DNA from: Panicum virgatum
Taxonomy: Eukaryota; Streptophyta; Magnoliopsida; Poales; Poaceae
Direction: 5' to 3'
Length of the DNA: 64,000 nt
NCBI RefSeq assembly: GCF_016808335.1
Contig: NC_053141.1
Span: 30,206,241 to 30,270,240, forward strand
The notes under the pieces: model-generated
What the model was told of the DNA's origin: nothing
The model's input: only the letters and a program-made list of their open reading frames with translations
The model's database searches: none
Translations under genes and position numbers: made by a program
Shown: positions 19,661 to 57,364 of the stretch, piece after piece
Layout of the letters: the number at the start of each line of letters is the position of its first letter
Position numbering within the stretch: position 1 is the first letter of the stretch

Positions 19661-19935
19661 CAGGGGCTCACTCCACTTAGCAGCAGCGGTTGACTCTATC
19701 CACCAGCTGCTAATATATGTTAGCAGCAGCGGTAGATAGGGTCAACCGCTGCTGCTAACTGGAGTGGGGCCGGCCGCCCACAGTTAGCAGCAGCGGTGCA
19801 CCTTTCCAACCGCTGCTGCTAAGTCTCGTAGCAGCAGCGGTAGTAAATGTCCACCACTACTGCTAATGGAGTGGGTCCGGCCACCCTCACTTACCAGCAG
19901 CGGTGAATTTTTCCAACCGCTGCTGTTAAGTGCCT
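19661..19935. repeat. CACTA type A subterminal array (AGCAGCAGCGGT)
   Basis: Alternating AGCAGCAGCGGT and ACCGCTGCTGCT motifs form several foldbacks, separated by GGAGTGGGGCCGGCC-type spacers. More copies are at 20780-20925, and the array is repeated in A2 at 43918-44110 and 44875-45045. Confidence 0.8.
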
Positions 19936-20323
19936 TATACTTATTATATTTATTCTATAATACATTTCTCCAACCTGCATCAAGAATACATTTCTTCTAT
20001 ATTTAATTCTTCTATTTACTCCTTTACTTCTGTTTATTTCTTTTATATTTAGTTCTTCTATTTACCCCTCTACTTTTATATATTCTTGCAATATCATACC
20101 TTAAACAACAAGAACACATTTGCCATGCACTCATGTTATAGTCATCTCAATGTGAGCTGAACACAACAAGAAATAATAAAACATAAAAACTGAAATAATG
20201 ATACATAAAAGCTAACAGCTTACATCTCAGCAAGCATTTTCTCCACAATGATAAAAAAATGTCAACGTACACACAATTTATCCACTAACTTGATGGATTT
20301 GCAACCGTCTTTGTAGAACTTGC

Positions 20324-20406
20324 AGGTGGTGTACACCTCAGCGAGTATTTTCTCCGCCGGTGGGTAGGACTCATATTAACTGAGATGTACACCACCTGCA
20401 GGTTCT
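20324..20406. repeat. 27-bp inverted repeat (foldback) in CACTA A1
   Basis: AGAACTTGCAGGTGGTGTAC and the following bases at about 20317-20343 are the near-perfect inverse of a segment ending at 20406, with a spacer of about 35 bp. The corresponding arms are in A2 at about 44411-44505, with different substitutions in the right arm. Confidence 0.7.
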
Positions 20407-21239
20407 ATAAAGGAGGGTAGGGCAGCTGCAAGGCAACTGGTTATGGAATAAATTCATTAGGATTTTTCCACAACCTGGAACTCCCACCGGAATAGTTGCA
20501 TCCGGCGAGAGATTAGGATTTTTCCACAACTTGGAGTTTGCATTACATGCAACCTATCCCAATAAGCAGAAAGGCAAGGAAGGAGGAGAAGAATATGTGA
20601 GGCATTGTTTCTACTGATGTAGCTTGGCAAGAGGTGGGGGGCACTGGAGGGTACTTATAGGCCCAAGACGAGCAAAAAACCAAAACAACTTTCGGTGGAG
20701 GGTCACAAGAACACAGTTTAAAAACTGAAATCGATGTTGAAAAAAATCTGGGACACTATCAGAATCGGTGAACGTAATCCACAGCGGTGGATAAATTGTC
20801 CACCACTGCTGATAAGTGGAGTGGGGCCGGCCGCCCACAGTTAACAGCAGCGGTGGACTTTCCAACCGCTGCTGCTAAGTCACTTAGCAGCCGCGGTGGA
20901 TAGCGTCAACTGCTTCTGCTAACTTATTTATAATTTATAATTTACTTATTCATATTTTCTTGTTTTATATAATCTTTTATTTACTTCTTTTATACAGAAT
21001 TATCTTATATTTACTTGTTATATCCCTTATTTTATATTTACTCCTTTTCATATTTTCTTGTTTTATATTGTCTTTTATTTACTTCTTTTATACATAATTA
21101 TCTTAGATTTACTTGTTATATCCTTTTTTTATATTTACTCCTTTAATATTTACTTGTTTTTGAAAAACAGAAGACAAATTTTGATCAAACTCAAAATATT
21201 TGACGTGCAAAGGTTACAATGTGAAATTAAATAACAATA

Positions 21240-24028
21240 GTGCATTAGGCGGTTACAAATCTTGGCTCTCCATCGAGCCGTGACCATGGTTTAACATCCT
21301 TTATGCTTGCTTCTACAATCTTGATCTTGGTTGGTAGATCTGTGAAGACCTACATGTCATCATAGTCATTGAAGGCCTCCACAACGTTCACACCATCAAC
21401 CCCGATAATAGTCTATTTGTCCGAGGCAACTATGTGCTTCTCATTCTTCTGGCTTGGGTCGACGACATATACAACCTGTGCAACTCGTTTGGCGAGTACC
21501 CAAGGGTCATCTTTGTAGCCAACCTTGGCCAGGTCAAAAATCATCAGGCCGTAGTTGTCCACCTCTACACCTTGTGGGTGTTTGACCCATTGGCACCTAA
21601 ACACAGGAATCTATATGGTCCTTCCATAGTCAAGCTCCCATATGTCCTCTATAAGGCCAAAATATGACCTTGTTTCCCGTCGTATCATCGATGGCGTCTA
21701 TCCAAACTCCACTGTTTTGGCAGACACTTTTCTTATCCTTAGTAGATGTGTAGAATGTATACCCATTAATATCGTATGACTGCCATGTCCTGACCTGTGC
21801 AAAAGGACCCAAAGCCAGCCGTTTCAATGTGATTCCCTCAACAGTTGTTCCCTCCTCTTTGTTTTGGTCCATGAGCCAGGTGGTGAATCGTTGTTTGTGC
21901 TCCTTCATGAACCAAGCCTTTGATCGGCCGTTGCTTTCTGCGCGAACAATATTAAAGTGCTGCTCGATGAACGGAGACATAATCTCCAACTGGTGTAGGA
22001 CATTGAAATGAGCGCTTGCCACTTGATGGTATGCCCTATCAACGAATGTTTTCCTCCCCCTCGTTCCTTTCCCTTCTAACTTTCCCGTGTGATGAGATGC
22101 AATCACGCCAATACCTTTCTTGTCCACCAAGTAATCCTGATAGCATTCTACAATCACTTCGGTGCAGTAAGCCTCTATCATGAACCCCTCAGGACAAGCA
22201 CAATTGAGAACATAGCGGTTTAGAGTTGCCATGAAACGCTTGTATGCCCACATTTCATGTAAGTAGGTAGGACCAAGTGCATGGATCTGGTCGACCATAT
22301 GTACCATGAGGTGTGGCATTATGTTGAAAAGTGATGGAGGAAAACACATCTCTAGCTAGGCCATAGTCTCCGTGCAGAACTGTTGCAGTGAATCCAATTC
22401 ATCTAAACGAATTTCCTTTTGCGAGATTTTGCTGAAGAAGTAGACCATCTGAGTTAATACCATACGCACAAATGCAGGCCTGGCAACCCTTATAGCAACC
22501 ACGAGGAATATCATTAGCATCATGTGACAATTGTGAGGGTTGTATCCGCTTAGCGATAAATCTTTCATGGATACTAGCATCTTTATTTTAGATGACAGCC
22601 CGGTTGGCAGCATAATTTTCCCATTCGCATGTTCCACGAGGTGGAGGTCACTTCTTATTCCCATGTTTACCAGGTCCCAACGTGACCTCAAGCCATCCTT
22701 TGTCTTGCCTTTTACAGCCATCAACAAACAGATAGTGCTATCGAACACGTTCTTCTTTATGTGCATAGCATCGACGGCATGTGGAACCTCCAAGTCCTTC
22801 CATCATGGCAAATACTTAAAGAACATTGACATCTTCTTGAAAGGCACGCCCTCTACAGGGGTTTTAGTTATCTTGATCTTCTTGCCATAGCTGATGTTAA
22901 TCTTCCTTACCATATCAAAAACATATTTGCTGTTGTGTCTTCTTATTGGTATTGAACCTGACTCTGCCTTACCATCAAAGAGGGCGTAGAATGCCTTCCT
23001 GTGGTATTTGTGCCTTTCAACAAGGAACCGGCAGTACTTCAGATACACAAATTTTTTTGAACCATCCAGGTACACAAACATCGTGCCATCCAGCCATACT
23101 AAACATCCCGTCTTTCCTTTGATCTGTCCAGAGATCGAGAACAATGCAGGGTAGTCATTGATGGTAACAATTATAATTCCATTGCATGTGAAGTGGTCCT
23201 TAGCATACTCATCCCACATTCGCACACCCTCATTCCAAAGCTTCACCATATCAGCCATCCATGGCTCAAGGAAGAAATCTATATCAATGCCCGGTTGTTT
23301 CGGCCCTTGTATCAGAATACACAACATTATGTACTTCCTCTTCTGGCAAAGCCAGGTCGGTAGGTTGTATATGGTCAATATAACTGCCCATGTGTTGTGT
23401 ATGCTGTTTCTTTCCCCAAAAGGATTCATTCCTTGTGTCCTTAGTGCAAACCTCACATTCCTTGGGTCCTTCGCAAACTCGGGGTACATCTCATCAAACC
23501 TTTTCAACTGTGTGCCATCGGCCGGGTGTGAAAGCTTACCCTCGTCCTGAATCCGCTCTTCATGCCACCAACACATCAGCTTTCCTTCTCGAGGGTTTGC
23601 AAACATACACCTTAAGCGGTCGATTGGATTGAGATACCACATACCAATTTGGGGAATCTCCTCTTGTTCTCGTCTATGCCTAAGCATGTATCTTCTTTGG
23701 AAGGTTCAGGCACACCCTTTTTCTTCCTCTTCTTCCATTTTGAGGATGCTTGATCGTCGTCCTTGTAAATGTCATTCTGCTTGTAACGGCTAGTGCCACA
23801 TGGTGGACATTTCTCTAGTTTCCCAAATGTTTCCCCTCGATATAGTATGCAGTAGTTCGGGCATGCGTGTATTCTCTCAATTCCCATTGTCAATGGGCTA
23901 ATGATCTTCTTTGCCTGGTACGTGTTCTCAGGCACAAAGTTAGGCTTCGAAAGCAACCAGGATAAGAGTTTCATCAGATCGTTGAAGCTAGAGTCAGACC
24001 ACCCGTACTTGGCCTTCAGAATACATGT
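21240..24028 (-). pseudogene. CACTA tnp2-like transposase, A1 copy (N-terminus deleted)
   Basis: From the 5' end (24028): WSDSSFNDLMKLLSWLL, IHACPNYCILYRGETF and LEKCPPCGTSRYK of the Transposase_21 family. Next come GERNSIHNTWAVILTIYNLP, DFFLEPWMADMVKLWNEG and CNGIIIVTINDYPA of the catalytic region, then VPHAVDAMHIKKNVFDS. DUF4218-type (YVLNCACPEGFM) and DUF4216-type (YTFYTSTKDKKSVCQNSGVW) segments close it. The enzyme would cut and move the element. Lesions are a 710-bp deletion removing the Transpos_assoc domain, a 1-base deletion near 23641, TGA at 22803-22805, TAG at 22356-22358 and a 1-base insertion near 21670. The last three are shared with A2. Confidence 0.9.
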
Positions 24029-24245
24029 GCTTATAAAAACATACGTTTAAAAAACTTGAATTTCGTACGTTGTAAACGTACACCTATGTTGCTTGGTTCG
24101 ATTAAAATATATATAGACGTTAAACACATGCTTGGGTTTTCTTAAGATCCAAAGACAGTACATATATAAGAGTATATTGAGTATTTTCACTAATTATTTT
24201 AATATTACTAGCTAGATGTTGTACCACAACGAAAAAGTAAAACTT

Positions 24246-24620
24246 TAAATGGTCCTCCAAGATGTATCGATGCATGGATTGATTGAAAGTTAATAATAAG
24301 AAGAAATAGAAAAAAGATTTTTAATGGTCCTCCAGAAAGTATGGATTTATAGGTTGAATAAAGTGGGACATAGGTTAATAATAAGAAAAAATAAAAAAAT
24401 AAATGATCCTCCAAAAGGAATCGATGCACAAATTGATTGCGGTGGGAGGTGGGTTAACAATACGTAAAAATAAAATAAAAAAATAAATGTTCCTCGGTGA
24501 GGAATCGATGCATGGATTGACTGTGGTGGGAGGTGTGTTAATAATAAGGTAAAATAAATAAAGAGAATTTAAATGATCCTCTATGAGGAATCGATGCATG
24601 GATTGATTGCGGTGGGAGAT
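24246..24620. repeat. minisatellite upstream of NLR copy 2
   Basis: Same 70-80-bp units (GGAATCGATGCATGGATTG, GGTGGGAGGTGGGTTAA) as at 17646-18015 and 51376-51735, with small length differences between arrays. Confidence 0.75.
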
Positions 24621-24818
24621 GGGTCACCAATGGCTACTAATAATCATGGATATAAATAGAAGGCGAGATGTTTCTGATTATTGTGGGATTTTCTAGACTT
24701 TTTTCTTTTTTTCTAGAGCGCTTCATAAGCCGTGCATGCTTTTCATCTCCAATTAGTAATAGTAAGATGCTCAGTTGCAGTTGTTCTCATCCACAACTAC
24801 AAACCATTTCAATGTCCC

Positions 24819-25140
24819 AGTTACAACTAGGATCATTAAAACCGTTGCATCTAGGACCGACGAGGCGATTGCAATTACAACTAAGGAATATACTCAGTCG
24901 CAATTAGCCAGATCCCGTGCGTGACTGCAACCGCTTCACTGCCGCCGTAATTACAACTAGGATCTTTAAATCGGTTGCAACTAGGACCAATAAAGCGATT
25001 CCAGTTACAACTAGAGAATATGCTGAGTTGCAATTGGCCTGACACCACAATTGCAACCGCTTCAATACCCTGGTTACAACTATGATTATTAAGCATGTTG
25101 CGACTTAGCTCGGACCAGTAAGACGAGTGCAATCCGGCTT
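24819..25140. repeat. three-unit tandem repeat upstream of NLR copy 2
   Basis: Same 115-140-bp units (GTTACAACTAGGAT-like) as at 18204-18535 and 51928-52245. Confidence 0.7.
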
Positions 25141-25999
25141 AGTTAGTTACATGACAGAGGGTAACTAAAAAAGTAATTACTCTCGTGCAACTAGCTTACT
25201 ATCCTAGTATATGTTTTGTTCTAACCAAAGACTACTCAAGTCCTTTGTTTTGTTTTTTCTTGCTCGATCCATACTCCTGTTAAGTTCATCAATTACCATC
25301 AACATCCACACTTTCTGCTTTCAGTGCAACTGTTTTCAGTAAATAAAAATGTATTATTATCCTGCCTATTGTTAGGTACTAAATCCAGGAACTCAGAAGT
25401 CACACATCACAAGTAGGAAATAAGAGTAATTAGAGTTGATTCGTCCGAGCTAGAGGCTATGGTATGTTCATGTTGAGGAACTAATCAGACATCTGTTCGA
25501 GATCCTCATCTGCTCCTTTGTGAATCGAGGCTATGGTACGTTAATCTTAAACACTGTTACCTTTCTCTTTTACATGCTCCAAAGTACGAAATCCCCTCGT
25601 ATATATAATGCTTCTTGTTTCATGTGATAACAGGAACAAGAAGGCTAGACGAGACTGTTTGCGGCCACAATTGTGCAGCTCAAAGACTAAAAGGCTAAAG
25701 AGCTCAGCTTCAGGCTAGCAGTCTACCTGTTTTCCCAGGTCAGACATCAATGTCATCAACTACTGTTTCATATAGGTGTATCAGATGGTGCCAGTCATAC
25801 ATCATGTTAGCAAAATAACAAAGAAACAATCATGCATGAAAAAAGCGCCATAGGATTCAGTTAGTTTGGAACATGCATAACCCATAATTTATTGAGAGTA
25901 CAGCTAGTTTTTGCAGATCATTTTTTTTGTTTCGAAAGTAGCAGCTCATGTTCAATTTGGTCTGCAAGATTTTTGGGAAAGGAGACACTTTCAAAATAA

Positions 26000-28900
26000 A
26001 TGATGGCCAGTATCAAAGGTGCTGCTGTGTCTGCAATTTTGAAAATTTTGGCAAACAAGTTAGCTCCATCGATGTTGAAGCAGTACAGCTCTATAGTGGG
26101 TGTGACAATGGATCTCCAGGATCTCAAGGGTCGATTTGAGGATATCAGCTCCTGGCTAGAAAAAGCAGGATGTAAAACAACGGATAATGATCAATTTTTC
26201 ATCAGAAAATTGAAACACGTCGCATACGACGTTGATGATATTGTTGATGAGTTCCATCTAGAGGCTGAGAAGCATGAAGCTGAAGTTGCCAACAATATTG
26301 TGTCAAAATGTCTCTGCACAAAACCAAAATCATATATGTTTCAATTCAAGGCTGCCCTCAAGATCAAGGCTATAAAGAATAGATTTGATGCAATAGTGAA
26401 GCAAAGAACTGACTTCAGTGCAATAGTAAACAGTTTGCCGGAAGGTCATCCTGTTCCACACATGAACAGGACTGCCAAGGCAACTCCAACAGTGCCAAAT
26501 GTTGCTGTGGCATCAATAATATGTGGAAGAGAGCGAGAAAAGCAGGAAATAATATCTAAACTGGTGGACAAAAATAACCAACAGATAATCAAGATAGTCT
26601 CCATAATTGGGCTTGGTGGCTCTGGGAAAACTGCCTTGTCTAACCTAGTTTTCGGTGATGGTAACACCGTAAAGGATCATTTTGAAGTAAGAATATGGGT
26701 TCATGTGCCCCAAGAATTTGATGTCCAACAGCTTATGATGAAGATGTTTGAAGCCATTACTTATCAAAAATCTGAACATCATTCCATACAGAACATAATT
26801 CAAACTATAGCAGATACATTGACTGGAAAGAGGTATTTGCTTGTATTAGATGATGTCTGGACTGTGGACCGAAGTCAATGGGAAGATTTTATGTTATATA
26901 TAAAGAGAGGAGCACCTGGAAGTAGTATTTTGTTGACAAGTCGCAACAGAAATGTTGCAGAAGCAGTGGAATCAACAGATCTGTCGAAGTTGTCGTCCTT
27001 GTCTAAGGATGATACCTGGACAGTGTTCACTCAGATCATTGGTGAGGACATAAAAGGTTTGGACTCTGAATTATTGGAAGTTGGGAGAGAGATTGTGAAT
27101 AAATGTGGTGGGGTGCCACTTGCAATTAAAGTTCTTGCAAATGTCCTTCGTGGCAAGACACGTATAGAACAATGGAAGGCCGTGAGAGACAGTAATCTAC
27201 TAGATGCTGAGGATAAAGAGCATAGAGTATTAGCAAGCTTGATGTTGAGCTATTCCCATTTACCATCCCATCTGAAACGGTGCTTCACAATATGTTCATT
27301 GTTTCCTAAAGGCCTTCCGCTCGATAAACAACAATTGGTTGACCAATGGATTGCTCACAATGTGATTAGTTTGACTCATGGTTACAATTGCTTGGAGGAT
27401 GTTGGCGACGAGTGCTTCAATTCACTTGTGCAAGTTTCTTTTCTCCAGGATGTGAAGGAATATTTTGGGAGAGTGTGTTACGAGATGCATGATTTGCTTC
27501 ATGATCTTGCCCAGTTCATCTTGGATGAGCAAATTTCAACTAATGTGCCAAAGGATGCAACCAGTTCCACAAAATACCACAAATACTTTTCCTTAGTTCA
27601 ACAGCCAAAAAAACCTTTGCCTAGAATGTTTTTCAAGAATGCACGTGCTATATATGTTGATGGTGGTGATTGTGATGATATAATATTCAACAAGGCCAAG
27701 AATGCAAAGCACTTGTGCAGTATCATTGCAAACAATAATCTATCGACAACAATGCTCACTGCCATATTTCAGACAAAACATTTGAAATATCTTGAGATGT
27801 CAAGATTGCAATGTGAATCACTCCCTGAAACTATGTCAGATATTTGGAGCCTGCAAGCTCTGCATCTAGAATGTAGTAGCCTTCTCGAGTTGCCCAAATC
27901 TATTGGTAAGCTGCAAAAGTTAAGAACACTGAACCTATCATGGTGTATGAAGCTAAAGTTTTTACCAGATTCAATTGGTGACTGTAATATGCTTTCAAGC
28001 ATTTATCTTTGCCAGTACATGGAGCTTGCAGCCTTGCCAAATTCTATTGGTAGAAATAAAAAGCTAAGAGTTCTTAAACTAGATCATACCAAGATTAAGG
28101 AGCTACCTGTAGTTATAACAAAATTGAGAAATCTACAATGTTTGAGTCTACGTAATTGTTATAGGCTGGTAGAGTTGCCCAAAGGCATCGGAAATTTGGA
28201 TAAGCTTCAAGTTTTGAACCTAGAATATTGTGTGCAGCTGGTAGAGCTACCTAAAGACATTAACAACTTGGAGAAGCTTCATGTTTTGAACTTGGAAAAT
28301 TGTGGGGAACTGGTAAATCTACCTGAAGGCACTAGCAAGTTGGAGAAGCTTTAAGTTTTGAACCTCGAAGGCTGTAGGAAGCTGGTAGAGCTGCCTGATG
28401 GCATTGTCAAGTTTGAGAGGCTTCAAGTTTTGAACCTGAAAGATTGTGAAGAATTGAGAGGGATGCCTGTAGGCATTGGACAATTCAGCAGTCAACTACA
28501 AAAGTTGCCCTTATTTGTTGTGGTAACGGTGAAAAGTTTGCTGGAATATCAGAGCTCGCAAATGTAGGTAGGAATAGTGAAGGTCTAATTATCAGAGGTA
28601 TTTCACATGTGTTGGAGAAAGATGATGCACATAAGGCATGCTTGAAAGAGAAGACAAATTTACAGAGGTTGAAGCTAGAATGGAAGATGCATCAGAAAGG
28701 TGAGGTGAACACTGAGTTTTTCTTTAATGAAAAGGTGGACACTATGTTGGAGGAGGCTGTACTTGATGGCCTAGAACCGCCAGCTGGGATTAAAGAGCTA
28801 GAAATTTGTGGGTACTCAGGCGAGAAATATGCATGGTGGATGCATAATCAGGTTGTTGGTACTCAAGTAAAGGGGCAAGCTTGCTTCCAATTTTTGAGGG

Positions 28901-30141
28901 CGATGAAGCTATCTGATTTCCAAGGATTGAAGCATCTACAAGGGCTTGTGGAACTTCCTTGTCTGGAGGAGCTTGAGCTGCACAAGATGCCTTCTCTTGA
29001 GAGCATAAGCTGTGGCCCATTTCCTTCACTGGTGAAGTTATTAATGGATGATCTACCTAGATTGGAAGAAGTGTGGTTGGTAGCAGAGAGGACCATGTCT
29101 GATGGAGAAGAGGGAGGAAACTGCAGCAATTGTGCACCTCACTCGAGACAGGTCCGAGTTGGTAATTGCTTGACATGTCTGAATATATCAAATTGTCTTA
29201 CATTGAAGATCAAGACATTCCTACCTTTGTCTTGTCACCTGAAGCATTGGAAGTTGTCTGAGTGTGCTGGGAAGTGGACCACAGAATCTAATTACCACTG
29301 CCAATTCAATTTCGAGAGGTCCAATTCATTCTTCTATCATAGCCACCTACAAAACACCGGACGTGAGTGGGAGGTGGTGCAACACATGACAGCATGGGAA
29401 TTATTGAAGACTTTTCTCATGGATAATGCACTAGGGGAGCTTCGATATCTACAAGAGCTAAACATTCTGAACTGCTGTCGCCTTAGTAGCCTTCCTCAAG
29501 CAATGGGGCAACTCACATCCCTCCAGGTGCTACGGATAGGAACGTGCGATGGACTTAAGCAGTTGCCGGAATGCTTGGGCGAGCTCTGTTCTCTTCGAAC
29601 TCTACATGTTGAATGGCTGCCCAAAATAAAGAGCCTTCCCCAATCGCTACAGCATCAGCATATCACATCACTTGAGGATCTCAGGATTCATGCATGTCAT
29701 GCACTTCATGAGCTGCCTAAATGGCTGGGAGATCTCTGTGCTCTATGCAAACTCCACATTTCTGGGTTGGATGGGCTGGCTTGCTTTCCCGAATCCATGT
29801 GCCGGCTCACGTCTCCTAAAGAGCTCTACATCGACAGCTGCCCACGCATCACATCCTTTCCGCAGGGGATGGAAAGCCTGGCCTCCCTTGAAAAGCTATG
29901 CATCTCTAGGTTAGGAGGAATCGTATCCTTGCCAGAGGGCATAAAAGGCTTCACCGCTCTGAAGAAATTGGAGATCATTGACTGTCAGGGAATAAAATCC
30001 TTGCCATAGGGTATAAAATGCCTCACCACTCTGAAGAAATTGGTGATCAAGAAGTGCCCTGATCTGGCGAGGCGCTCCGAGGAAGGAAAGGGGAAGGACT
30101 GGCACCTCATTTCCCACATCCCTGATGTGTGGATTGATTGA
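26000..30141 (+). pseudogene. CC-NB-ARC-LRR disease resistance gene, copy 2 (stop in LRR; could make a 784-residue truncated NLR)
   Basis: NLRs are cytoplasmic receptors that detect pathogen effectors and trigger immunity. The first 784 codons (26000-28354) are open. They hold a coiled-coil N-terminus with VDDIVDEFHLEAE (about residue 78, EDVID-like) and the P-loop GLGGSGKTAL (204-213). Then follow LLVLDDVW (280-287), GSSILLTSRN (307), CGGVPLAIK (369), CFTICSLFPKG (428) and the MHD motif (496-498). LRRs start near residue 590. A TAA at 28352-28354, where the repeat pattern expects Gln, interrupts the LRRs. A 1-base deletion near 28525 shifts frame; the rest reads 28609-30009, then TAG at 30007-30009 and a natural-looking TGA at 30139-30141. 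The start is the first of two adjacent ATGs. No intron is evident. A 30-bp in-frame gap relative to copy 3 lies after QTIA near 26815. RGA-like, by inference. Confidence 0.92.
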
Positions 30142-30164: not shown

Positions 30165-30215
30165 CTACTCCCTCCGAATTTAAATATTTGTCGCGGTTGA
30201 CTTTTTTTGCAACAT
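30165..30215. mobile_element. half of a Stowaway-like MITE
   Basis: TACTCCCTCCGAATTTAAAT followed by ATTTGTCGCGGTTGAC resembles the terminal part of grass Stowaway MITEs (TA target, CTCCCTCCG start). Only one end is present. The same half element follows NLR copy 3 at 57297-57341, so it was duplicated with the gene. Confidence 0.55.
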
Positions 30216-30230
30216 TGAATCATCCGTGTT

Positions 30231-30253
30231 TGTGTGTGTGTGTGTGTGTGTGT
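30231..30253. repeat. (TG)n microsatellite
   Basis: About eleven TG dinucleotides in a row, preceded by an imperfect TG stretch. Confidence 0.95.
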
Positions 30254-30271
30254 ATACAAGAGTGGTTTTTT

Positions 30272-30317
30272 TGGGTATAGCAGGACTTGAACCTGCGACC
30301 TTTAGGTTAAAAGCCCA
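30272..30317 (-). pseudogene. 3' half of a mitochondrial-type tRNA-Lys(UUU)
   Basis: The minus strand has an anticodon arm with loop CTTTTAA (UUU anticodon), the variable region, a T-arm reading GCAGGTTCAAGTCCTGC, and a TATACCCA end. From memory this matches plant mitochondrial trnK. The D-arm and 5' acceptor strand are missing, so it cannot fold as a tRNA. It is read as organelle DNA in the nucleus. Confidence 0.65.
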
Positions 30318-31250: not shown

Positions 31251-33302
<2,052 letters not shown>

Positions 33303-38310: not shown

Positions 38311-38332
38311 ACTGGTCAACTCCATTGAGGGT

Positions 38333-42250: not shown

Positions 42251-42351
42251 AGAATCCAACCCGTGCGAGAGCCTAGATCGACGGTCTAGTGCAAGCCAAA
42301 CATAAAACATACAAGTTAAAATAATCTCCAGCATTGTGGAGGGCGAGAGTG
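42251..42351. other. unassigned 100 bp between LINE and CACTA B2
   Basis: It does not continue the LINE protein and has no terminal repeats. It could be LINE-unrelated target DNA or a rearrangement scar. Confidence 0.4.
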
Positions 42352-43200: not shown

Positions 43201-43261
43201 ATTAGTGATTTATACATATACAGAAACGTTGTGTATTGCATTATTAATTGAGATGTTTCAT

Positions 43262-43910: not shown

Positions 43911-43914
43911 AGGG

Positions 43915-46900: not shown

Positions 46901-49035
46901 CGAACACGTTCTTCTTTATGTGCATAGCATCGATGGCATGTGGAACCTCCAAGTCCTTCCATTATGGCAAATACTTAAAGAACATTGACATCTTCTTGAA
47001 AGGCATGCCCTCTATAGGGGCTTTAGTTATCTTGATCTTCTTGCCATAGCTGATGTTTATCTTCCTTACCATATCAAAAACATATTTGCTGTTGTGTTTT
47101 CTTATTGGTATTGAACCTTGACTCTGCCTTACCATCAAAGAGGGCGTAAAACGCCTTCCTGCAGTATTTGTGCCTTTCAACAAGGAACCGGCGGTACTTC
47201 AGATAGACAAATTTTTTTTGAACCATCCAGGTATACAAACATCGTGCCATCCAGCCATACTAAACATCCCGTCTTCCTTTGATCTGTCCAGAGATCGAGA
47301 ACAATGCAGGGTAGTCATTAATGGTAACGATTATAATTCCTCTGCATGTGAAGTGGTCCTTAGCATACTCGTCCCACATTCACACACCCTCATTCCAAAG
47401 CTTCAGATGGCTCAAGGAAGACATCTATATCAATGCCCGGTTGTTTCGGCCCTTGTATCAGAATACACAACATTATGTACTTCCTCTTCTGTTAAAGCCA
47501 GGTCGGTAGGTTGTATATGGTCAATATAACTGCCCATGTGCTGTGTATGCTGTTTCTTTCCCCAAAAGGATTCATTCCGTCTGTCCTTAGTGCAAACCTC
47601 ACATTCCTTGGGTAATTCGCAAACTCGGGGTACATCTCATCAAACCTTTTCCACTGCGTGCCATCGGCTGGGTGTGAAAGCTTACCCTCGTCTTGAATCC
47701 GCTGTTCATGCCACCAACACATCAGCTTTCCTTCTCGAAGGTTTGCAAACATACGCCTTAAGCGGTCGATTGGATTGAGGTACCACATAACCAATTTGGG
47801 GAATCTCCTCTTGTTCACGTCTATGCCTAAGCATGTATCTTCTTCGGAAGGTTCAGGCACACACTTTTTCTTCCTCTTCTTCCTTTTGGAGGATGCTTGA
47901 TCATCGTCCTTGTAAATGTCATTCTGCTTGTAACAACTAGTGCCACATGTTGGACATTTCTCTAGTTTCCCAAATGTTTCCCCTCGATATAGTATCCTGT
48001 AGTTCGGGCAGGCATGTATTCTCTCAATTCCCATTGTGAATGGGCTAATAATCTTCTTTGCCTGGTACATGTTCTCAGGCACAAAGTTAGGCTTCGGAAG
48101 CAACCAGGATAAGAGTTTCATCAGATCGTTGAAGCTAGAGTCAGACCATCCGTACTTGGCCTTCAGAATCAATAGCTCGAGTACAAACCGTAGCTCAGAC
48201 CAATGAGTTGGACACCCCCTTTCTCGTACATGCTATGGTGTGCAGCATCCTCTACCACCTTGAAATGCTCTAACCCTTTCGCGCTCCCAATAAGGACATC
48301 CGCCTTAAAGTGCTTCAGCATTTGTTCCAGCTCATCTGCATCACTATCATCATCACCATATTGGCCTTCTAAACTCCCCGAAGGTATGCTTATGTATCCA
48401 CCACCGCCGTCATCATTTCCATCAACATGAGAACACGTCATGTGAAGGTCGGCATCGAAGAATGTTTCACTATCATCCGCATCTCCACATCCTATAAACC
48501 CGTATGTTCCTTGATCGGTTACTGGTAGTTCCGAAGGAGTGTCATGCTCTCCATGATGGATCCAAGTGGAGTAGTCATCAACAAATCCTTCAATGATCAC
48601 GTGTGACCTGATGGTGACTGCGTCTGCCCAGACCTTCAGATTTTTACACTTCCTATAAGGGCAACATATACCGGAAACCCCCTTGATCCTCGCATCCATC
48701 TTCGCAACATCAATGAATTTATCCAATTCAACACGGAAAGCCCTCTCCGTCCTTTTCATGGTATACATCCACCGACGAGCCATCTACAAATTGAATTTTC
48801 ACAAAACATTCCGTGGCACATCTTGAGATAATAGACTATTGATCTCGTAACAAACTTACATTATTTGACTGGTACAAATACATGTGCTTATAAAAACATA
48901 CGTTTAAAAAACTTGAATTTCGTACGTTATAAACGTACACCTATGTTGCTTGGTTCGATTAAAATATATATAGACGTTAAACACATGCTTGGGTTTTCTT
49001 AAGATCCAAAGACAGTACATATATAGGAGTATATC
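43915..49035 (-). mobile_element. CACTA element A2 (ends not intact)
   Basis: Colinear with A1: subterminal arrays at 43918-44110 and 44875-45045, a foldback near 44411-44505, AT-rich units at 45050-45270, and a tnp2-like gene at 45370-48783. It starts in the middle of the A1 array (A1 position about 19738), so its left end is lost. Its right end stops at the same GAGTATAT point as A1. The stretch 44110-45370 holds no gene. Confidence 0.82.
45370..48783 (-). pseudogene. CACTA tnp2-like transposase, A2 copy (with N-terminal domain)
   Basis: The 204-residue frame at 48169-48783 is a Transpos_assoc domain: MARRWMYTMKRTERAF, then GICCPYRKCKNL, VIIEGFVDDYSTWIHHGEH and an acidic linker. A frameshift near 48200 leads to SELRFVLELLILKAKYGWSD of Transposase_21 (47492-48172: IHACPNYRILYRGETF, LEKCPTCGTS, GERNSIHSTWAVIL). 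A TAA near 47492 (Cys in A1), a small deletion near 47405, TAA at 46962-46964, TAG at 46476-46478 and a 1-base insertion near 45790 break the rest. That rest includes the DUF4218/DUF4216-type regions (YVLNCACPEGFM; YTFYTFAKDKKSVC). It is longer than A1 because it keeps the 710 bp that A1 lost. Confidence 0.9.
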
Positions 49036-51375
49036 CATATTGAAGGAATACATCTGGCGATTGCAGGTGGCACAGCCAGAAGCAGCAGATCTGAGCTCCT
49101 GGTACATGTTTTATCTGTTTTAATCAATGACATCTCAAGTCCTCTGTTCATTTTTTCTTTCTCCAGCAAAGTTGGTCGATTTCTTCTCCCACGATCAATG
49201 AATATACACATTCTGCTTTCGCTGCAACTGTTTTGAGCAAACAAAACTGGTGATTGTTCTGCCCATTATCAGGTAATAGGGGCAGGAAAATCAGAAATCA
49301 TATATCATAAGTACAATACGTAGCCAGAGGAGAGGACGAATACGTTTGAGCTCAGCTGGTACATCTTCTGTTCTAACCAAGGACAGCTCAAGTCCTCTGT
49401 TTAGTTTTTCTTGCTCCATACTCCATTGAGGTTCATCGATTTACAATCAACATTGACACCTTCTGCTCTGAATGCAACTATTTTCAGCAAACAAACACTA
49501 ATGATTATTGATCTGGTGGCTATTGTCAGGTACTGAAGGCAGGATACTCACAAGTCATACATCACAAGTAGGAAACTTACGTGATAATGCTTGGTTCTTC
49601 TAAGCTAGAGGCTATTTATCTTCAGAGACTAATCGACCACATCGTTCTCCCAATTCTCATCTACGGAAGGCTGAAAGCTCAAAAGGCATAAATCATAATT
49701 ACAGCACAAGATCCTATTCAATTGCTTTGTGAGTTGAAGCTACGGTATGTTAATCTTAAACACCGTTACTTTTCTATTTGACATGCTCAAAAGTCCTAAA
49801 TCTCCTCATACATACATATGTACATATGCATGAGAAAATGCGCGTACACGCATCTGATTCTGTTGCTGCTGACCACGCATCTCTGCAAAACACCAGCCGA
49901 CCAGCATCTGTCCCCATGGACGCACGTCTGTCTCTGCAACACAAAGCGCGACGCACGCAGCATGCGTTTATCGGTCCCATGTGCTTATTGCATGGCAGCC
50001 TGTTGCAATAATTACGTTTTGCGTACAAGCTAAACAAACAGACTTGCCAAGTTTTTAATCTCCTATTGCAGCCATAAAAAGATAGGCAGAAAATCGTGTG
50101 ACCCATGTATGCTAGCTACAACTAGTCTATATTTCTTCTGTGCATATAGTTGCAAGTAACTCACTTAAAATTAGGCAATACTAGTCCACCAACCCGTGCT
50201 CCTCCACGGGCTAGAACTATAACAAATATAAACATTAATTAGGTGGTTGTGGATAAATTTAATACATACAACTAATAAAAATACTTATATTTGTTTTTTT
50301 CTTTCTCTGTCATCTATCCACGCGCTCACATTTTCTAACTGTAATAATGCTTTCTTAGTTTGTATTCTATATTGATTGTGATAAACTAATAATTAATTAT
50401 ATAACTTTTATCATCTACGTTGATAGTTTCTCACCCTTCAAAATGTGTCCTTAACATATTATTTTACGATTTAAAATTTGTCCATAGGAACTAAAAGTTA
50501 GGAGATTAATAACATAAGGAAAGTGATCAACATATGTAACACGTCAATAAGGGGACACATGTGCCTTAACTCAACCTTACTAAATTAAACTGTATGAGAA
50601 TTTCTAAAACATAAATTATCATGGAACATAGGGAGTACCTTGAAATCTATGTTTAAATATGTCATCTACTTTTTTATCCTTGTTGTGGTGATGTACGAAT
50701 CCAGATTTCCTTTTAAACTTTTGTTAATTTAGTTACTTTCTATTTATCTATTTTCTAATAATAGCTAATACTGGTAAATGTAGATGTAGTTTTTTAATTT
50801 TAAAATGACATAGATGTCTAATTTATATGAATATATTGGGTGTGTAGATTATTTACTATAATATATAATATGGTTTTCTATTTAACTTTATAAGATTATA
50901 TTAAAGAAATTAAACATGTGTGAAAAATTACATGTAGATTTTAGGGTTGTTTTAAATAATATTTCATATTGTAAGTGGGTAATTCAAATACAATTAAAGG
51001 GGTTACCTTAAATCATCTCTTATAATATAGATAATTTGAATATATAAATTTACTGTGCTTCTTTAAGTTCTATTTTATAGGGTTGTTTGTGAATTTGTTT
51101 AAAAATAGAATGAATGCAATAATTATTTCTATAGATATATGTTTTTTAAAATATTTAATACTTACTCTATCGGTCTAAAACTATAAACCACAACTAACAT
51201 TTGATTCAATGTTTGGTTGTCTATTATATCTAATAAAATTGTATGTATAATATTTATTTTGTTGTGTTTTTCGTTCTTTCTAAGTATTTTATGTATTATG
51301 TTTATTGAGTATTTTCACTAATTATTTTAATATTACTGGCTAGATGTTGTACCACAACAAAAAAGTAAAACTTTA

Positions 51376-51735
51376 ATTGGTCCTCCAAGATGTATCAATG
51401 CATGGATTAATTGAAAGTTAATAATAAGAAGAAATAGAAAAAAAGATTTTTAATGGTCCTCCAAAAAGTATGGATTTATAGGTTGAATACAGTGGGACAT
51501 AGGTTAATAATAAGAAAAAATAAAAAAATAAATGATCCTCCAATCGATGCATAAATTGATTGAGGTGGGAGGTGGTTTAATAATACGTAAAAATTAAATG
51601 TTCCTCTGTGAGGAATCGATGCATGGATTGACTGTGGTGGCAGGTGTGTTAATAATAAGGAAAATATATAAAGAGAATTTAAATGATCCTCTATGAGGAA
51701 TCGATGCATGGATTGATTGCGATGGGTCACCTTTG
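51376..51735. repeat. minisatellite upstream of NLR copy 3
   Basis: Same unit as at 17646 and 24246 but slightly shorter, with small deletions at about 51542, 51590 and 51720. Confidence 0.75.
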
Positions 51736-51927
51736 GCTACTAATAATCATGGATATAATTAGAAGGCCAGATGTTTCTGATTATTGTGGAATTTTCTAGA
51801 CTTTTTTCTCTTTTTCTAGAGTGCTTCGTAAGCCGTGCATCCTTTTCATCTCCAATTAATAATAGTAAGATGTTCAGTTGCAGTTGTTCTCATCCACAAC
51901 TACAAACTATTTCAATGTCCCAGTTAC

Positions 51928-52245
51928 AACTAGATCATTAAAACCGTTGCATCTAGGACCGACGAGGCGATTGCAATTACAACTAAGCAATATACTCAGT
52001 CGCAATTGGCCAGATCCCGTGCGTGACTGCAACCGCTTCACTACCGCCGTAATTACAACTAGGATCTTTAAATCGGTTGCAACTAGGACCAATAAAGCGA
52101 TTCCAGTTACAACTAGAGAATATGCTCAGTTGCAATTGGCCTGACACCACAATTGCAACCGCTTCAATACCCTGGTTACAACTATGATTATTAAGCCTGT
52201 TGCGACTTAGCTAGGACCAGTAAGACGAGTGCAATCTGGCTTAGT
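51928..52245. repeat. three-unit tandem repeat upstream of NLR copy 3
   Basis: Same GTTACAACTAG-type units as at 18204 and 24819. Confidence 0.7.
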
Positions 52246-53101
52246 TAGTTACATGACAGAGGGTAACTAAAAAAGTAATTACTCTCATGCAACTAGCTTA
52301 CTATCCTAGTATATGTTTTGTTCTAACCAAAGACTACTCAAGTCCTTTGTTTTGTTTTTTTCTTGCTCGATCCATACTCCTGTTAAGTTCGTCAATTACC
52401 ATCAACATCCACACTTTCTGCTTTCAGTGCAACTGTTTTCAGCAAATAAAAATGTATTATTATCCTGCCTATTGTTAGGTACTGAATCCAGGAACTCAGA
52501 AGTCACACATCACAAGTAGGAAATAAATGTAATTAGAGTTGATTCGTCTGAGCTAGAGGCTATGGTATGTTCATCTTGAGGAACTAATCAGCCATCTGTT
52601 CGAGATCCTCATCTGCTCCTTTGTGAATCGAGGCTATGGTACGTTAATCTTAAACACTGTTACCTTTCTCTTTTACATGCTCCAAAGTATGAAATCCCCT
52701 CGTATATATAATGCTTCTTGTTTCATGTGATAACAGGAACAAGAAGGCTAGACGAGACTGTTTGCGGCCACAGTTGTGCAGCTCAAAGACTAAACGGCTA
52801 AAGAGCTCAGCTTCAGGCTAGCAGTCTACCTGTTTTCCCAGGTCAGACATCAATATCATCAACTACTGTTTCATATAGGTCTATCAGATGGTGCCAGTCA
52901 TACATCATGTTAGCAAAGTAACAAAGAAACAATCATGCATGAAAAAGTGCCATAGGATTCAGTTAGTTTGGAACATGCATAACCCATAATTTATTGAGAG
53001 TACAGCTAGTTTGTGCAGATCATTTTTTTTGTTTCAAAAGTAGCAGCTCATGTTCAATTTGGTCTGCAGGATTTTTGGGCAAGGAGACACTTTCAAAATA
53101 A

Positions 53102-56100
53102 ATGATGGCCAGTATCGAAGGTGCTGCTGTGTCTGCAATTTTGAAAATTTTGGCAAACAAGTTAGCTCCATTGATGATGAAGCAGTACAGCTCTATAGTG
53201 GGTGTGACAAAGGATCTCCAGGATCTCAAGGGTCGATTTGAGGATATCAGCTCCTGGCTAGAAAAAGCAGGATGTAAAACTACGGATAATGATCAATTTT
53301 TCATCAGACAATTGAAACACGTCGCATAGGACGTTGATGATATTGTTGATGAGTTCCATCTAGAGGCTGAGAAGCACGAAGCTGAAGTTGCCAACAATAT
53401 TGTGTCAAAATGTCTCTGCACAAAACCAAAATCATATCTGTTTCAATTCAAGGCAGCCCTTAAGATCAAGGCTATAAAGAAGAGATTTGATGCAATAGTG
53501 AAGCAAAGAACTGACTTCAGTGCAACAGTAAACAGTTTGCCGGAAGGTCATCCTGTTCCACACATGAACAGGACTGCCAGGGCAATTCCAACAGTGCCAA
53601 ATGTTGTTGTGGCATCAATAATATGTGGAAGTGAGCGAGAAAAGCATGAAATAATATCTAAACTAGTGGACAAAAATAACCAACAGATAATCAAGATAGT
53701 CTCCATAATTGGGCTTGGTGGCTCTAGGAAAACTGCCTTGTCTAACCTTGTTTTCGGTGATGGTAACACCGTAAAGGATCATTTTGAAGTAAGAATATGG
53801 GTTCATGTGCCTCAAGAATTTGATGTCTAAGAGCTTATGATGAAGATGTTTGAAGCCATTACTTATAAAAAATCTGAACATCATTCCATACAGAACATAA
53901 TTCAAACTATAGCAATTAGTTTGCTTCAAAATGGGAAGTTGTTTGCACCGTTGACTGGAAAGAGGTATTTGCTTGTATTAGATGATGTCTGGACTGTGGG
54001 CCGAAGTCAATGGGAAGATTTTATGTTATATATAAAGAGAGGAGCACCTGGAAGTAGTATTTTGTTGACAAGTCGCAATAGAAATGTTGCAGAAGCAGTG
54101 GAACCAACAGATCTGTTGAAGTTGTTGTCCTTGTCCAAGGATGATAGCTGGACTGTGTTCACTCAGATCATTGGTGAGGACATAAAAGGTTTGGACTCTG
54201 AATTATTGGAAGTTGGGAGAGAGATTGTGAATAAATGTGGTGGGGTTCCACTTGCAATTAAAGTTCTTGCAAATGTCCTTCGTGGCAAGACACGTATAGA
54301 ACAATGGAAGGCCGTGAGAGACAGTAATCTACTAGATGCTGAGGATAAAGAGCATAGAGTATTAGCAAGCTTGATGTTGAGCTATTCCCATTTACCATCC
54401 CATCTGAAACGGTGCTTCACAATATGTTCATTGTTTCCTAAAGGCCTTCCGCTCGATAAACAACAAATGGTTGACCAATGGATTGCTCACAATGTGATTA
54501 GTTTGACTCATGGTTACAATTGCTTGGAGGATGTTGGCGACGAGTGCTTCAATTCACTTGTGCAAGTTTCTTTTCTCCAGGATGTGAAGGAATATTTTGG
54601 GAGAGTGTGTTACGAGATGCATGATTTGCTTCATGATCTTGCCCAGTTCATCTTGGATGAGCAAATTTCAACTAATGTGCCAAAGGATGCAACCAGTTCC
54701 ACAAAATACCACAAATACTTTTCCTTAGTTCAACAGCCAAAAAAACCTTTGCCTAGAATGTTTTTCAAGAATGCACGTGCTATATATGTTGATGGTGGTG
54801 ATTGTGATGATATAATATTCAACAAGGCCAAGAATGCAAAGCACTTGTGCAGTATCATTGCAAACAATAATCTATCGACAACAATGCTCACTGCCATATT
54901 TCAGACAAAACATTTGAAATATCTTGAGATGTCAAGATTGCAATGTGAATCACTCCCTGAAACTATGTCAGATATTTGGAGCCTGCAAGCTCTGCATCTA
55001 GAATGTAGTAGCCTTCTCGAGTTGCCCAAATCTATTGGTAAGCTGCAAAAGTTAAGAACACTGAACCTATCATGGTGTATGAAGCTAAAGTTTTTACCAG
55101 ATTCAATTGGTGACTGTAATATGCTTTCAAGCATTTATCTTTGCCAGTACATGGAGCTTGCAGCCTTGCCAAATTCTATTGGTAGAAATAAAAAGCTAAG
55201 AGTTCTTAAACTAGATCATACCAAGATTAAGGAGCTACCTGTAGTTATAACAAAATTGAGAAATCTACAATGTTTGAGTCTACGTAATTGTTATAGGCTG
55301 GTAGAGTTGCCCAAAGGCATCGGAAATTTGGATAAGCTTCAAGTTTTGAACCTAGAATATTGTGTGCAGCTGGTAGAGCTACCTAAAGACATTAACAACT
55401 TGGAGAAGCTTCATGTTTTGAACTTGGAAAATTGTGGGGAACTGGTAAATCTACCTAAAGGCACTAGCAAGTTGGAGAAGCTTTAAGTTTTGAACCTCGA
55501 AGGCTGTAGGAAGCTGGTAGAGCTGCCTGATGGCATTGTCAAGTTTGAGAGGCTTCAAGTTTTGAACCTGAAAGATTGTGAAGAATTGAGAGGGATGCCT
55601 GTAGGCATTGGACAATTCAGCAGTCAACTACAAAAGTTGCCCTTATTTGTTGTGGTAACGGTGAAAAGTTTGCTGGAATATCAGAGCTCGCAAATGTAGG
55701 TAGGAATAGTGAAGGTCTAATTATCAGAGGTATTTCACATGTGTTGGAGAAAGATGATGCACATAAGGCATGCTTGAAAGAGAAGACAAATTTACAGAGG
55801 TTGAAGCTAGAATGGAAGATGCATCAGAAAGGTGAGGTGAACACTGAGTTTTTCTTTAATGAAAAGGTGGACACTATGTTGGAGGAGGCTGTACTTGATG
55901 GCCTAGAACCGCCAGCTGGGATTAAAGAGCTAGAAATTTGTGGGTACTCAGGCGAGAAATATGCATGGTGGATGCATAATCAGGTTGTTGGTACTGAAGT
56001 AAAGGGGCAAGCTTGCTTCCAATTTTTGAGGGCGATGAAGCTATCTGATTTCCAAGGATTGAAGCATCTACAAGGGCTTGTGGAACTTCCTTGTCTGGAG

Positions 56101-57273
56101 GAGCTTGAGCTGCACAAGATGCCTTCTCTTGAGAGCATAAGCTGTGGCCCATTTCCTTCACTGGTGAAGTTATTAATGGATGATCTACCTAGATTGGAAG
56201 AAGTGTGGTTGGTAGCAGAGAGGACCATGTCTGATGGAGAAGAGGGAGGAAACTGCAGTAATTGTGCACCTCACTCGGGACAGGTCCGAGTTGGTAATTG
56301 CTTGACATGTCTGAATATATCAAATTGTCTTACATTGAAGATCAAGACATTCCTACCTTTGTCTTGTCACCTGAAGCATTGGAAGTTCTCCGAGTGTGCT
56401 GGGAAGTGGATCACAGAATCTAATTACCACAGCCAATTCCATTTCGAGAGGTCCAATTCATACTTCTATCATAGCCACCTACAAAACACCGGACGTGAGT
56501 GGGAGGTGGTGCAACACATGACAGCATGGGAATTATTGAAGACTTTTCTCATTGATAATGCGCTAGGGGAGCTTCGATATCCACAAGAGCTAAACATTCT
56601 GAACTGCTGTCGCCTTAGTAGCCTTCCTCAAGCAATGGGGCAACTCACATCCCTCCAGGTGCTACGGATAGGAATGTGCGACGGACTTAAGCAGTTGCCG
56701 GAATGCTTGGGCGAGCTCTGTTCTCTTCGAACTCTACATGTTGAATGGCTGCCCAAAATAAAGAGCCTTCCCCAATCGCTGCAGCATCAGCATCTCACAT
56801 CACTTGAGGATCTCAGGATTCATGCATGTCATGCACTTCATGAGCTGCCTGAATGGCTGGGAGATCTCTGTGCTCTATGCAAACTCCACATTTCTGGGTT
56901 GGATGGGCTGGCTTGCTTTCCCGAATCCATGTGCCGGCTCACGTCCCTTAAAGAGCTATGCATCGACAGCTGCCCACTCATCACATCCTTTCCGTAGGGG
57001 ATGGAAAGCCTGGCCTCCCTTGAAAAGCTATGCATCTCTAGGTTAGGAGGAATCGGATCCTTGCCAGAGGGCATAAAAGGTTTCACCGCTCTGAAGAAAT
57101 TGGAGATCATTGACTATCAGGGAATAAAATCCTTGCCAGAGGGTATAAAATGCCTCACCACTCTGAAGAAATTGGTGATCAAGAAGTGTCCTGATCTGGC
57201 GAGGCGCTATGAGGAAGGAAAGGGGAAGGACTGGCACCCCATTTCGCACATCCCTGATGTGCGGATTGATTGA
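53102..57273 (+). pseudogene. CC-NB-ARC-LRR disease resistance gene, copy 3 (multiply disrupted)
   Basis: Near-identical to copy 2 in order and length. The coiled coil is cut by TAG at 53327-53329 (Tyr in copy 2). The P-loop reads GLGGSRKTAL because AGG at 53726-53728 replaces GGG, losing the invariant Gly before Lys. TAA at 53828-53830 replaces the Gln after EFDV. From 53837 a 549-residue frame runs through LLVLDDVW, GSSILLTSRN, CGGVPLAIK, CFTICSLFPKG, the MHD motif and LRRs to TAA at 55484-55486. That TAA is the same stop as in copy 2, and the same 1-base deletion follows near 55657. Another TAG is at 56995-56997, where copy 2 has Gln; the last part is open to TGA at 57271-57273. It has 10 codons (after QTIA, near 53912) that copy 2 lacks. 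Clearly a pseudogene. Confidence 0.93.
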
Positions 57274-57364
57274 GGTGTGTCATGGGCCCTTTTTTTCTAA
57301 TCCCTCCGAATTTAAATATTTGTCGCGGTTGACTTTTTTTTGCCACGTCAGCCCTGCCGGCCCG

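What the first reader, a model, noticed from the sequence alone, without database searches (positions are those of the whole stretch)
19661..57340. A CACTA-plus-NLR block duplicated as one unit, with a third truncated NLR unit beside it
The order dead CACTA A transposase, NLR flank, NLR gene occurs twice in the same orientation (19661-30220; 43915-57340). A third flank plus the first 72 bp of the gene is at 15316-19227. Transposon and resistance gene have been amplified together, which suggests that a chimeric TE-NLR segment is the unit of cluster growth here.
Basis: partly seen in the sequence, partly recalled or inferred. Interest (0 to 1): 0.75.

Follow-up and report, generated by a model that had tools for sequence, protein, structure and literature searches.

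The report
Duplicated dead transposon and resistance gene
In what looks like switchgrass DNA, a broken jumping gene and the neighbouring disease-resistance gene appear to have been copied together, the copies then decayed, and a stretch of one gene was overwritten by a sister copy carrying a stop signal; this is ordinary resistance-gene-cluster turnover with an unusually clear record.

Summary
The repeat is real. Copy 1 (19735-30208) and copy 2 (43914-57340) share, in order and orientation, a dead CACTA transposase segment, an upstream flank and a CC-NLR gene. A third flank plus 72 bp of NLR lies at 15316-19227. Joint duplication is supported: CACTA and flank+NLR have the same transversion divergence (50/4270 versus 56/4408, p=0.70); only transitions are raised in the CACTA.

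"Unit of cluster growth" is not shown. Only two chimeric copies are visible. The third flank has no CACTA at its left edge. The CACTA|flank junction differs between copies (copy 1 lacks 710 bp and 2271 bp there). No canonical CACTA terminus was found at the right end.

The clearest new result is a gene-conversion tract, 27335-28864. NLR1 carries alpha-type markers on both sides and beta-type markers, like NLR2, inside. The tract carries a premature stop that five alpha paralogues lack. NLR2 is a pseudogene; NLR1 is truncated.

NLR1 matches a Panicum virgatum chromosome 6K protein almost exactly; 11 further close switchgrass proteins are listed, 10 on short contigs, with CACTA context unknown. 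Ordinary in kind.

The parts
15316..19227 (+). F0: third copy of NLR upstream flank plus the first 72 bp of the NLR reading frame (NLR0 stub); 238 bp missing at 19000
   Evidence: 96.2% to 49044-52708, 97.4% to 52945-53171; stub ends at 19227
19228..19734 (.). Segment between NLR0 stub and A1: 143-aa open frame on + strand (19229-19657), then CACTA-type subterminal repeats from 19669
   Evidence: No counterpart left of A2; 9 protein matches, one of them named (Paspalum vaginatum hypothetical protein); no Pfam match
19735..24177 (-). A1: dead CACTA segment (Transposase_21, DUF4218; transposase N-terminal part missing; 2 stops in the 691-codon stretch 21633-23705)
   Evidence: no TAGTG seen at right end
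24172..25999 (+). F1: NLR upstream flank, copy 1, lacking the distal 2.26 kb
26000..30138 (+). NLR1 (CC-NB-ARC-LRR, alpha type outside the tract): 784-codon open frame, premature stop 28352-28354, frame break, second stop at 30007
   Evidence: Pfam Rx_N, NB-ARC, WH_DRP, LRR_14, LRR_R13L1-DRL21; lesions; P0002 = PVAP13_6KG201606 matches with 0/444, 0/252, 1/111 and 1/357 differences in the four regions
27335..28864 (+). Gene-conversion tract in NLR1; counterpart 54467-55996 in NLR2; includes the shared stop and frame break
   Evidence: One difference between the bounding ones at 27335 and 28864; best 1600-bp window 2 differences, 2000 shuffles give at least 16; beta-type residues inside, alpha outside
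43914..49034 (-). A2: dead CACTA segment (Transpos_assoc, Transposase_21), reading frame broken; no TAGTG seen at right end
49044..53101 (+). F2: NLR upstream flank, copy 2, longest of the three
53102..57270 (+). NLR2 (beta type): pseudogene with stops at 53327, 53828, 55484 and 56995, P-loop GSRKT, 30 extra bp starting at 53919
30209..43913 (.). 13.7-kb spacer between the copies, not duplicated in the window; holds an ORF with a sub-threshold endonuclease/reverse-transcriptase match, a snoRNA, an OB-fold fragment and a CACTACA end at 42369

Best explanation
Shown: a segment made of a CACTA fragment without a recognisable right terminus, the NLR upstream flank and a CC-NLR gene is present twice in direct orientation, with matching transversion divergence of its transposon and gene parts. 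Inferred: one illegitimate or unequal recombination event copied it roughly 1.5-3 million years ago (recalled grass rates of 1.3e-8 and 6.5e-9 per site per year, synonymous difference 3.9%), carrying the CACTA as a passenger and not moved by transposase. Afterwards copy 1 lost 710 bp of CACTA and 2271 bp of CACTA edge plus flank by microhomology deletion, and NLR0, next to it, was reduced to a stub. Very recently a beta-type paralogue (NLR2 or a sister) overwrote about 1.5 kb of NLR1 by gene conversion, importing a premature stop. The net process is birth, decay and concerted evolution of NLR copies, some of them already dead.
For: Order and orientation. Transversions 50/4270 (CACTA) against 56/4408 (flank+NLR outside the tract), p=0.70. 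Same right-end nucleotide of the CACTA in both copies, with no TAGTG seen there. Copy 1 joints show 3-bp overlaps AAT and TAT. Conversion: 2 differences in the best 1600-bp window against a minimum of 16 in 2000 shuffles, a 990-bp identical run against a shuffle maximum of 676; synonymous differences 11/283 and 11/282 on the two sides, 0/211 and 0/67 inside. NLR1 carries alpha markers N-terminally (3 of 3) and C-terminally (3 of 3) but beta markers in the tract (5 of 5). Paralogue distances of NLR1: N region 5/444 to alpha P0005 against 17/421 to beta P0008; tract before the stop 0/263 to beta P0009 and 1/241 to beta P0008 against 9/120 to alpha P0007 and 6/130 to alpha P0097; C region 7/368 to alpha P0005 against 16/396 to beta P0009.
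Against: No junction is shared base for base on both sides between the two copies. The copy 1 deletion starts within about 10 bp of the CACTA|flank border, an uncomfortable coincidence. The CACTA end pieces (573 bp, 6 differences, no transversion) are less diverged than flank+NLR (p=0.008) and CACTA coding DNA more (p=0.0013), so divergence along the block is not uniform. The order of F0, F1 and F2 is unresolved. One beta protein, P0003, is 15/317 from NLR1 in the tract (P0004 6/316, P0015 5/286), so the protein distances alone do not separate all beta from all alpha rows there; the single-residue markers do. The shuffles assume an even mutation rate.
Confidence: 0.72

Rival explanations
1. 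Two related CACTA fragments came to lie upstream of two already duplicated F-NLR genes by separate insertions; transposon and NLR were not copied together.
For: CACTA|flank joints sit at different flank positions (49044 in copy 2, 51306-equivalent in copy 1) while the CACTA side ends at the same base, as two insertions of one element would. Raw CACTA divergence is higher (173/3783 against 126/4408), and transitions remain higher after cleaning (p=0.013).
Against: No canonical CACTA terminus is seen at the shared right end, so transposition would not be expected to create it twice. Transversion divergence is equal. The fragments are on the same side and in the same orientation.
Confidence: 0.13
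2. Copy 1 is one F-NLR gene, starting at 15316, into which a repair event inserted about 4.9 kb of filler copied from CACTA A2 and other DNA, duplicating 1.66 kb of its own flank (17569-19227 = 24172-26071). F0 would then be the 5' part of the NLR1 unit and not a third unit.
For: It explains why F1 starts at the 17569-equivalent, why the NLR0 stub abuts other DNA, and why F0 and F2 share the same left edge. F0-F1 is the closest flank pair (41/1658 against 51/1629 and 50/1634). F2 is the odd one out at 30 of 67 single-odd sites, p=0.034; with indels that I counted by eye, 38 of 79, p=0.0046.
Against: The F2 excess sits in the 84-bp repeat region (21 of 31 sites in the first 640 columns, 9 of 36 after; p=0.0006); after it the odd sites are 14, 13 and 9 for F0, F1 and F2. 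A1/A2 divergence as old as F/NLR means the capture would have to date to about the NLR split itself.
Confidence: 0.12
3. Part of the three-copy picture, or the near-identical NLR tract, is an assembly artefact of a heterozygous tetraploid genome.
For: 10 of 11 other close switchgrass NLR proteins sit on contigs of 27-70 kb, so this family is probably hard to assemble.
Against: Joints are private to each copy. NLR1 is alpha-beta-alpha with both sides diverged from NLR2, and P0001 on another contig is a different mosaic with a beta C-terminal marker.
Confidence: 0.05

Closest known systems
CACTA (En/Spm, CMC) DNA transposons, Tnp2 type
   Same: Transposase_21, Transpos_assoc and DUF4218 domains; AGCAGCAGCGGT subterminal repeats on one side
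   Different: No TAGTG seen on the right, transposase broken in both copies, so not an autonomous element now
CC-NB-ARC-LRR genes of the RGA1-RGA3 / maize rp3-like group in grasses
   Same: Rx_N, NB-ARC, WH_DRP, LRR_14 and R13L1/DRL21 LRR; rp3 proteins P0079, P0080 and P0105 appear at 44-47% identity; duplicated and recombining
   Different: Both long copies here carry premature stops; NLR2 has a non-consensus P-loop
NLR clusters evolving by unequal crossing-over, segmental duplication and gene conversion (common-bean I cluster, PMC13392006; cacao NLRs, PMC12405883; passages seen of each)
   Same: Same processes: copy-number growth, exchange between copies, pseudogenes
   Different: Here a specific dead transposon fragment is part of the copied block; [quoted passage not shown]

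Membership tests
CACTA transposon (A1, A2) | Tnp2-type transposase domains | tested here: met
   Transposase_21 E=4e-64 (A1) and 5.8e-25 (A2), Transpos_assoc 6.9e-20 (A2), DUF4218 2e-16 (A1)
CACTA transposon (A1, A2) | CACTA...TAGTG termini at both ends | tested here: not met
   No TAGTG seen at 24177 or 49034; a CACTACA end at 42369, with a different subterminal repeat, may or may not be the left end of A2
CACTA transposon (A1, A2) | 3-bp target-site duplication | not testable with these tools
   No intact pair of ends and no empty site available
CACTA transposon (A1, A2) | Subterminal repeats | tested here: met
   AGCAGCAGCGGT or its complement at 19679-19830, 20865, 43924-44009 and 44879-44986, none further right
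CC-NLR disease-resistance gene | Rx_N, NB-ARC, winged helix, LRR | tested here: met
   All four in NLR1; NB-ARC, winged helix and LRR found in the two NLR2 pieces searched
CC-NLR disease-resistance gene | Uninterrupted full-length reading frame | tested here: not met
   Stops at 28352 and 30007 in NLR1; at 53327, 53828, 55484 and 56995 in NLR2; frame break after 28354 and 55486
CC-NLR disease-resistance gene | P-loop motif GxGGxGKT (recalled) | tested here: inconclusive
   GLGGSGKT in NLR1 (met), GLGGSRKT in NLR2 (not met)
Segmental duplication of TE plus NLR as one block | Equal divergence of TE part and NLR part | tested here: inconclusive
   Transversions 1.17% against 1.27%, p=0.70 (met); transitions differ, p=0.013, and CACTA end pieces are less diverged, p=0.008
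Segmental duplication of TE plus NLR as one block | Shared TE|flank breakpoint | tested here: inconclusive
   CACTA side shared to the base, flank side 2.26 kb apart
Chimeric TE-NLR unit repeatedly amplified | Three or more units with the same TE at the same place | tested here: inconclusive
   Only two in the window and the third flank has no CACTA on its left; other genomic copies not readable

The most novel reading that the evidence does not exclude
The A-F-NLR chimera is the repeated unit of a larger switchgrass array (two copies here plus the alpha and beta copies on other contigs). Breaks in hairpin-forming CACTA subterminal repeats help create new copies, and a P-loop-altered beta lineage is the one spreading, both by duplication and by overwriting alpha neighbours. 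The cluster would then grow mainly by dead copies.
Probability: 0.12. Interest if true: 0.6.

Novelty: new member of a known kind. Interest (0 to 1): 0.3.

Why it matters
It is a compact record of how an NLR cluster turns over: a transposon fragment carried along in one duplication, small microhomology deletions, and a gene-conversion tract that moved a premature stop between subfamilies. It cautions against reading TE-NLR linkage as TE-driven amplification. The alpha/beta marker set also gives a direct test of whether pseudogene lineages dominate the switchgrass array.

Tried and rejected
Rejected: raw divergence as proof of different ages for CACTA and NLR. Part of the gap came from one misaligned stretch (22605-22690, 29 differences in 86 columns) and the rest is in transitions.

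Rejected: the shared NLR1/NLR2 stop as proof that the gene was dead before duplication. The stop lies inside the conversion tract.

Rejected: F0 as a demonstrably older outgroup unit. The three flanks are nearly equidistant.

Left out before counts: the alpha and beta sets exclude P0002 (NLR1's own entry) and the mosaics P0001 and P0011. P0005, P0006 and P0020 were not used for the tract distance because they align badly there (105/256, 107/254, 24/64). 13 of the 120 listed proteins (2035 hits) were fetched and compared.

Led nowhere: two viral-contig scans with NLR1 and transposase queries found no relatives. Ten literature searches listed no paper whose title or shown abstract describes a CACTA-NLR chimera as a duplication unit; they cover open-licence papers only, and one search returned nothing. 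The passages of PMC5974169 held nothing on transposons copied with resistance genes.
Full report
Observation. Copy 1 spans 19735-30208 and copy 2 spans 43914-57340. Each has, in the same order and on the same strands, a CACTA transposase segment (minus strand), an upstream flank and an NLR gene (plus strand). A further flank with the first 72 bp of the NLR lies at 15316-19227. Pfam identifies Transposase_21, Transpos_assoc and DUF4218 in the transposon pieces, and Rx_N, NB-ARC, WH_DRP and LRR families in the genes.

Where it comes from. NLR1 is matched by P0002 (PVAP13_6KG201606, Panicum virgatum, on a 48.49-Mb contig) with 0/444, 0/252, 1/111 and 1/357 differences in four regions. I therefore take the window to be switchgrass chromosome 6K. 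That is inferred from this protein match only; the genome search did not complete (nine attempts).

The copies are not intact duplicates. Copy 1 lacks 48170-48879 of the CACTA, the transposase N-terminal part, with a 3-bp overlap AAT at the joint. It also lacks 49035-51305, the CACTA edge plus 2.26 kb of flank, with a 3-bp overlap TAT. Copy 2 lacks 80 bp that copy 1 has between two CATCTCA repeats. The third flank lacks 238 bp. On the left, the CACTA segments stop matching at 19735 and 43914. Copy 1 continues into 19228-19734, a fragment with a 143-aa frame that has 9 protein matches, one named (Paspalum vaginatum). Copy 2 is preceded by a 337-bp tandem repeat and, at 42369, a CACTACA end with another subterminal repeat. 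No TAGTG is seen at the right end of either CACTA, and the reading frame is broken in both, so neither looks able to move by itself.

Was it one duplication? The first alignment gave 173 differences in 3783 CACTA-body columns, against 126 in 4408 for flank+NLR outside the conversion tract described below. One stretch of 86 columns (22605-22690, 29 differences) is misaligned and was dropped. With the two CACTA end pieces added, the CACTA has 150 differences in 4270 (p=0.087 against flank+NLR). Transversions are 50/4270 and 56/4408 (p=0.70); transitions are 100 and 70 (p=0.013). The excess is in transposase coding DNA (106/2422, p=0.0013) and not in non-coding CACTA (44/1848, p=0.31). In the first, uncleaned alignment, CG sites differed at 43/214 in the CACTA and 23/184 outside the tract. 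I read this as equal age with more C-to-T change in methylated transposon DNA; methylation itself was not measured. Against simple uniformity, the CACTA end pieces have only 6 differences in 573 bp, fewer than flank+NLR (p=0.008).

The junction problem. The CACTA side of the CACTA|flank joint is the same to the base in both copies (24177 = 49034), but the flank side is not: 51306-equivalent in copy 1, about 49044 in copy 2. If copy 1 arose by deletion from the copy 2 arrangement, the deletion started within about 10 bp of the border. That is a coincidence, though the spot is AT-rich and offers microhomology. Two independent insertions would explain the border but would need the same non-terminal end twice. 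I put joint duplication well ahead, not beyond doubt.

The third flank. Its homology to copy 2 begins where the CACTA of copy 2 ends (15316 = 49044), and nothing of that CACTA was found in 13150-15340. The three flanks differ pairwise by 41/1658 (F0-F1), 51/1629 (F0-F2) and 50/1634 (F1-F2); odd-one-out sites are 19, 18 and 30 for F0, F1 and F2, with 2 sites where all differ. F2 is thus odd more often than a star would give (30 of 67, p=0.034; 38 of 79 with indels counted by eye, p=0.0046), which would pair F0 with F1. But the F2 excess is concentrated in the first 640 columns, the 84-bp repeat region (21 of 31 sites, then 9 of 36; p=0.0006). After that the odd sites are 14, 13 and 9. So F0 is not a demonstrably older unit, and the order of events cannot be settled here.

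Gene conversion. NLR1 and NLR2 differ by about 3% except from 27335 to 28864, where one difference lies between the two bounding ones. The best 1600-bp window has 2 differences; 2000 shuffles of the 128 differences of 24172-30208 never gave fewer than 16. The longest identical run is 990 bp against 676 in shuffles. Synonymous differences are 11/283 and 11/282 on the two sides and 0/211 and 0/67 inside. Paralogues split into an alpha set (P0005, P0006, P0007, P0020; P0097 where it can be scored) and a beta set (P0003, P0004, P0008, P0009, P0015). Of 11 markers, NLR1 is alpha at 3 of 3 N-terminal, beta at 5 of 5 tract and alpha at 3 of 3 C-terminal markers; NLR2 is beta at all 11. Protein distances mostly agree: in the tract before the stop NLR1 is 0/263, 1/241, 6/316, 5/286 and 15/317 from beta P0009, P0008, P0004, P0015 and P0003, and 9/120 and 6/130 from alpha P0007 and P0097. 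P0003 overlaps the alpha range. P0005, P0006 and P0020 were not used there because they align badly (105/256, 107/254, 24/64); they still carry the alpha markers. P0001 is a different mosaic (alpha N-terminal, beta tract, beta C-terminal where scored), and P0011, an unnamed metagenome protein, mixes beta-like residues before about position 126 with alpha ones after. The tract contains a premature stop (28352, 55484) and a frame break. The five alpha paralogues scored (P0005, P0006, P0007, P0020, P0097) read through the stop position. The beta gene models leave that stretch out, so whether other beta genes carry the stop is not known. The donor was therefore beta-type, NLR2 or a sister.

State of the genes. 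NLR2 has stops at 53327, 53828, 55484 and 56995, 30 extra bp and GSRKT in the P-loop. NLR1 keeps a 784-codon CC-NB-ARC-partial-LRR frame, then the imported stop and a private one at 30007. Outside the tract pN/pS is 0.57 and 0.50 (23 and 19 against 11 and 11 changes), which hints at past constraint but was not tested against 1. NLR1 might still yield a truncated protein; that is untested.

Compared with what is known. NLR clusters growing by unequal crossing-over, segmental duplication and gene conversion are standard (passages in PMC13392006; [quoted passage not shown] The switchgrass NB-LRR survey PMC5100175 (passages) says that incomplete NB-LRR sequences could reflect incomplete duplication, assembly or annotation, or be pseudogenes. 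Ten search listings showed no title or abstract on a CACTA-NLR chimera as a unit. This is a well-resolved case of a known kind.

Verdict. The repeat is real and the CACTA and NLR were probably copied together. The CACTA looks like a passenger, not the engine. The finding worth keeping is the stop-bearing conversion tract and the alpha/beta marker set.

Noticed in passing
window 1-13149: Copia-like LTR retrotransposon on the minus strand: direct LTRs 1-893 and 12255-13149 (95% identical), RVT_2 and SH3_retrovirus matches at 3739-4635; the left LTR may begin before the window.
   Followed up: partly
window 15364-16086 and 18598-19000: Inside the third flank, the NLR-proximal region (18598-19000) has diverged copies (about 71-79%) at the distal end, suggesting an older duplication of the NLR 5' region.
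   Followed up: partly
[not shown]
   Followed up: no
window 35323-35952: Minus-strand ORF with an OB-fold match (tRNA_anti-codon, 21.9 bits, below the curated cut-off of 27), by eye like an aminoacyl-tRNA synthetase N-terminus: perhaps a gene fragment in the spacer.
   Followed up: no
window 14468-14817 and 42369-42620: Two ends that look like other CACTA-type elements with AGCAGAGGCGGT subterminal repeats: a right end (TAGTG at 14813-14817) left of F0 and a left end (CACTACA at 42369) left of A2.
   Followed up: partly
window 57341-57500: Right of NLR2 the match ends next to a 45-bp inverted repeat with ACTCCCGTCGGC motifs, like the subterminal repeats of yet another CACTA family.
   Followed up: no
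proteins P0001, P0003-P0009, P0015, P0020, P0097: Besides NLR1's own entry, 11 close switchgrass NLR proteins are among the 120 listed, 10 of them on contigs of 27-70 kb; some may be alleles. Of the five beta proteins, four (P0003, P0004, P0008, P0009) show the altered P-loop GSRKT and P0015 lacks that part. Beta P0003 and alpha P0005 both give 42202 as contig length, so they may lie on one contig.
   Followed up: partly
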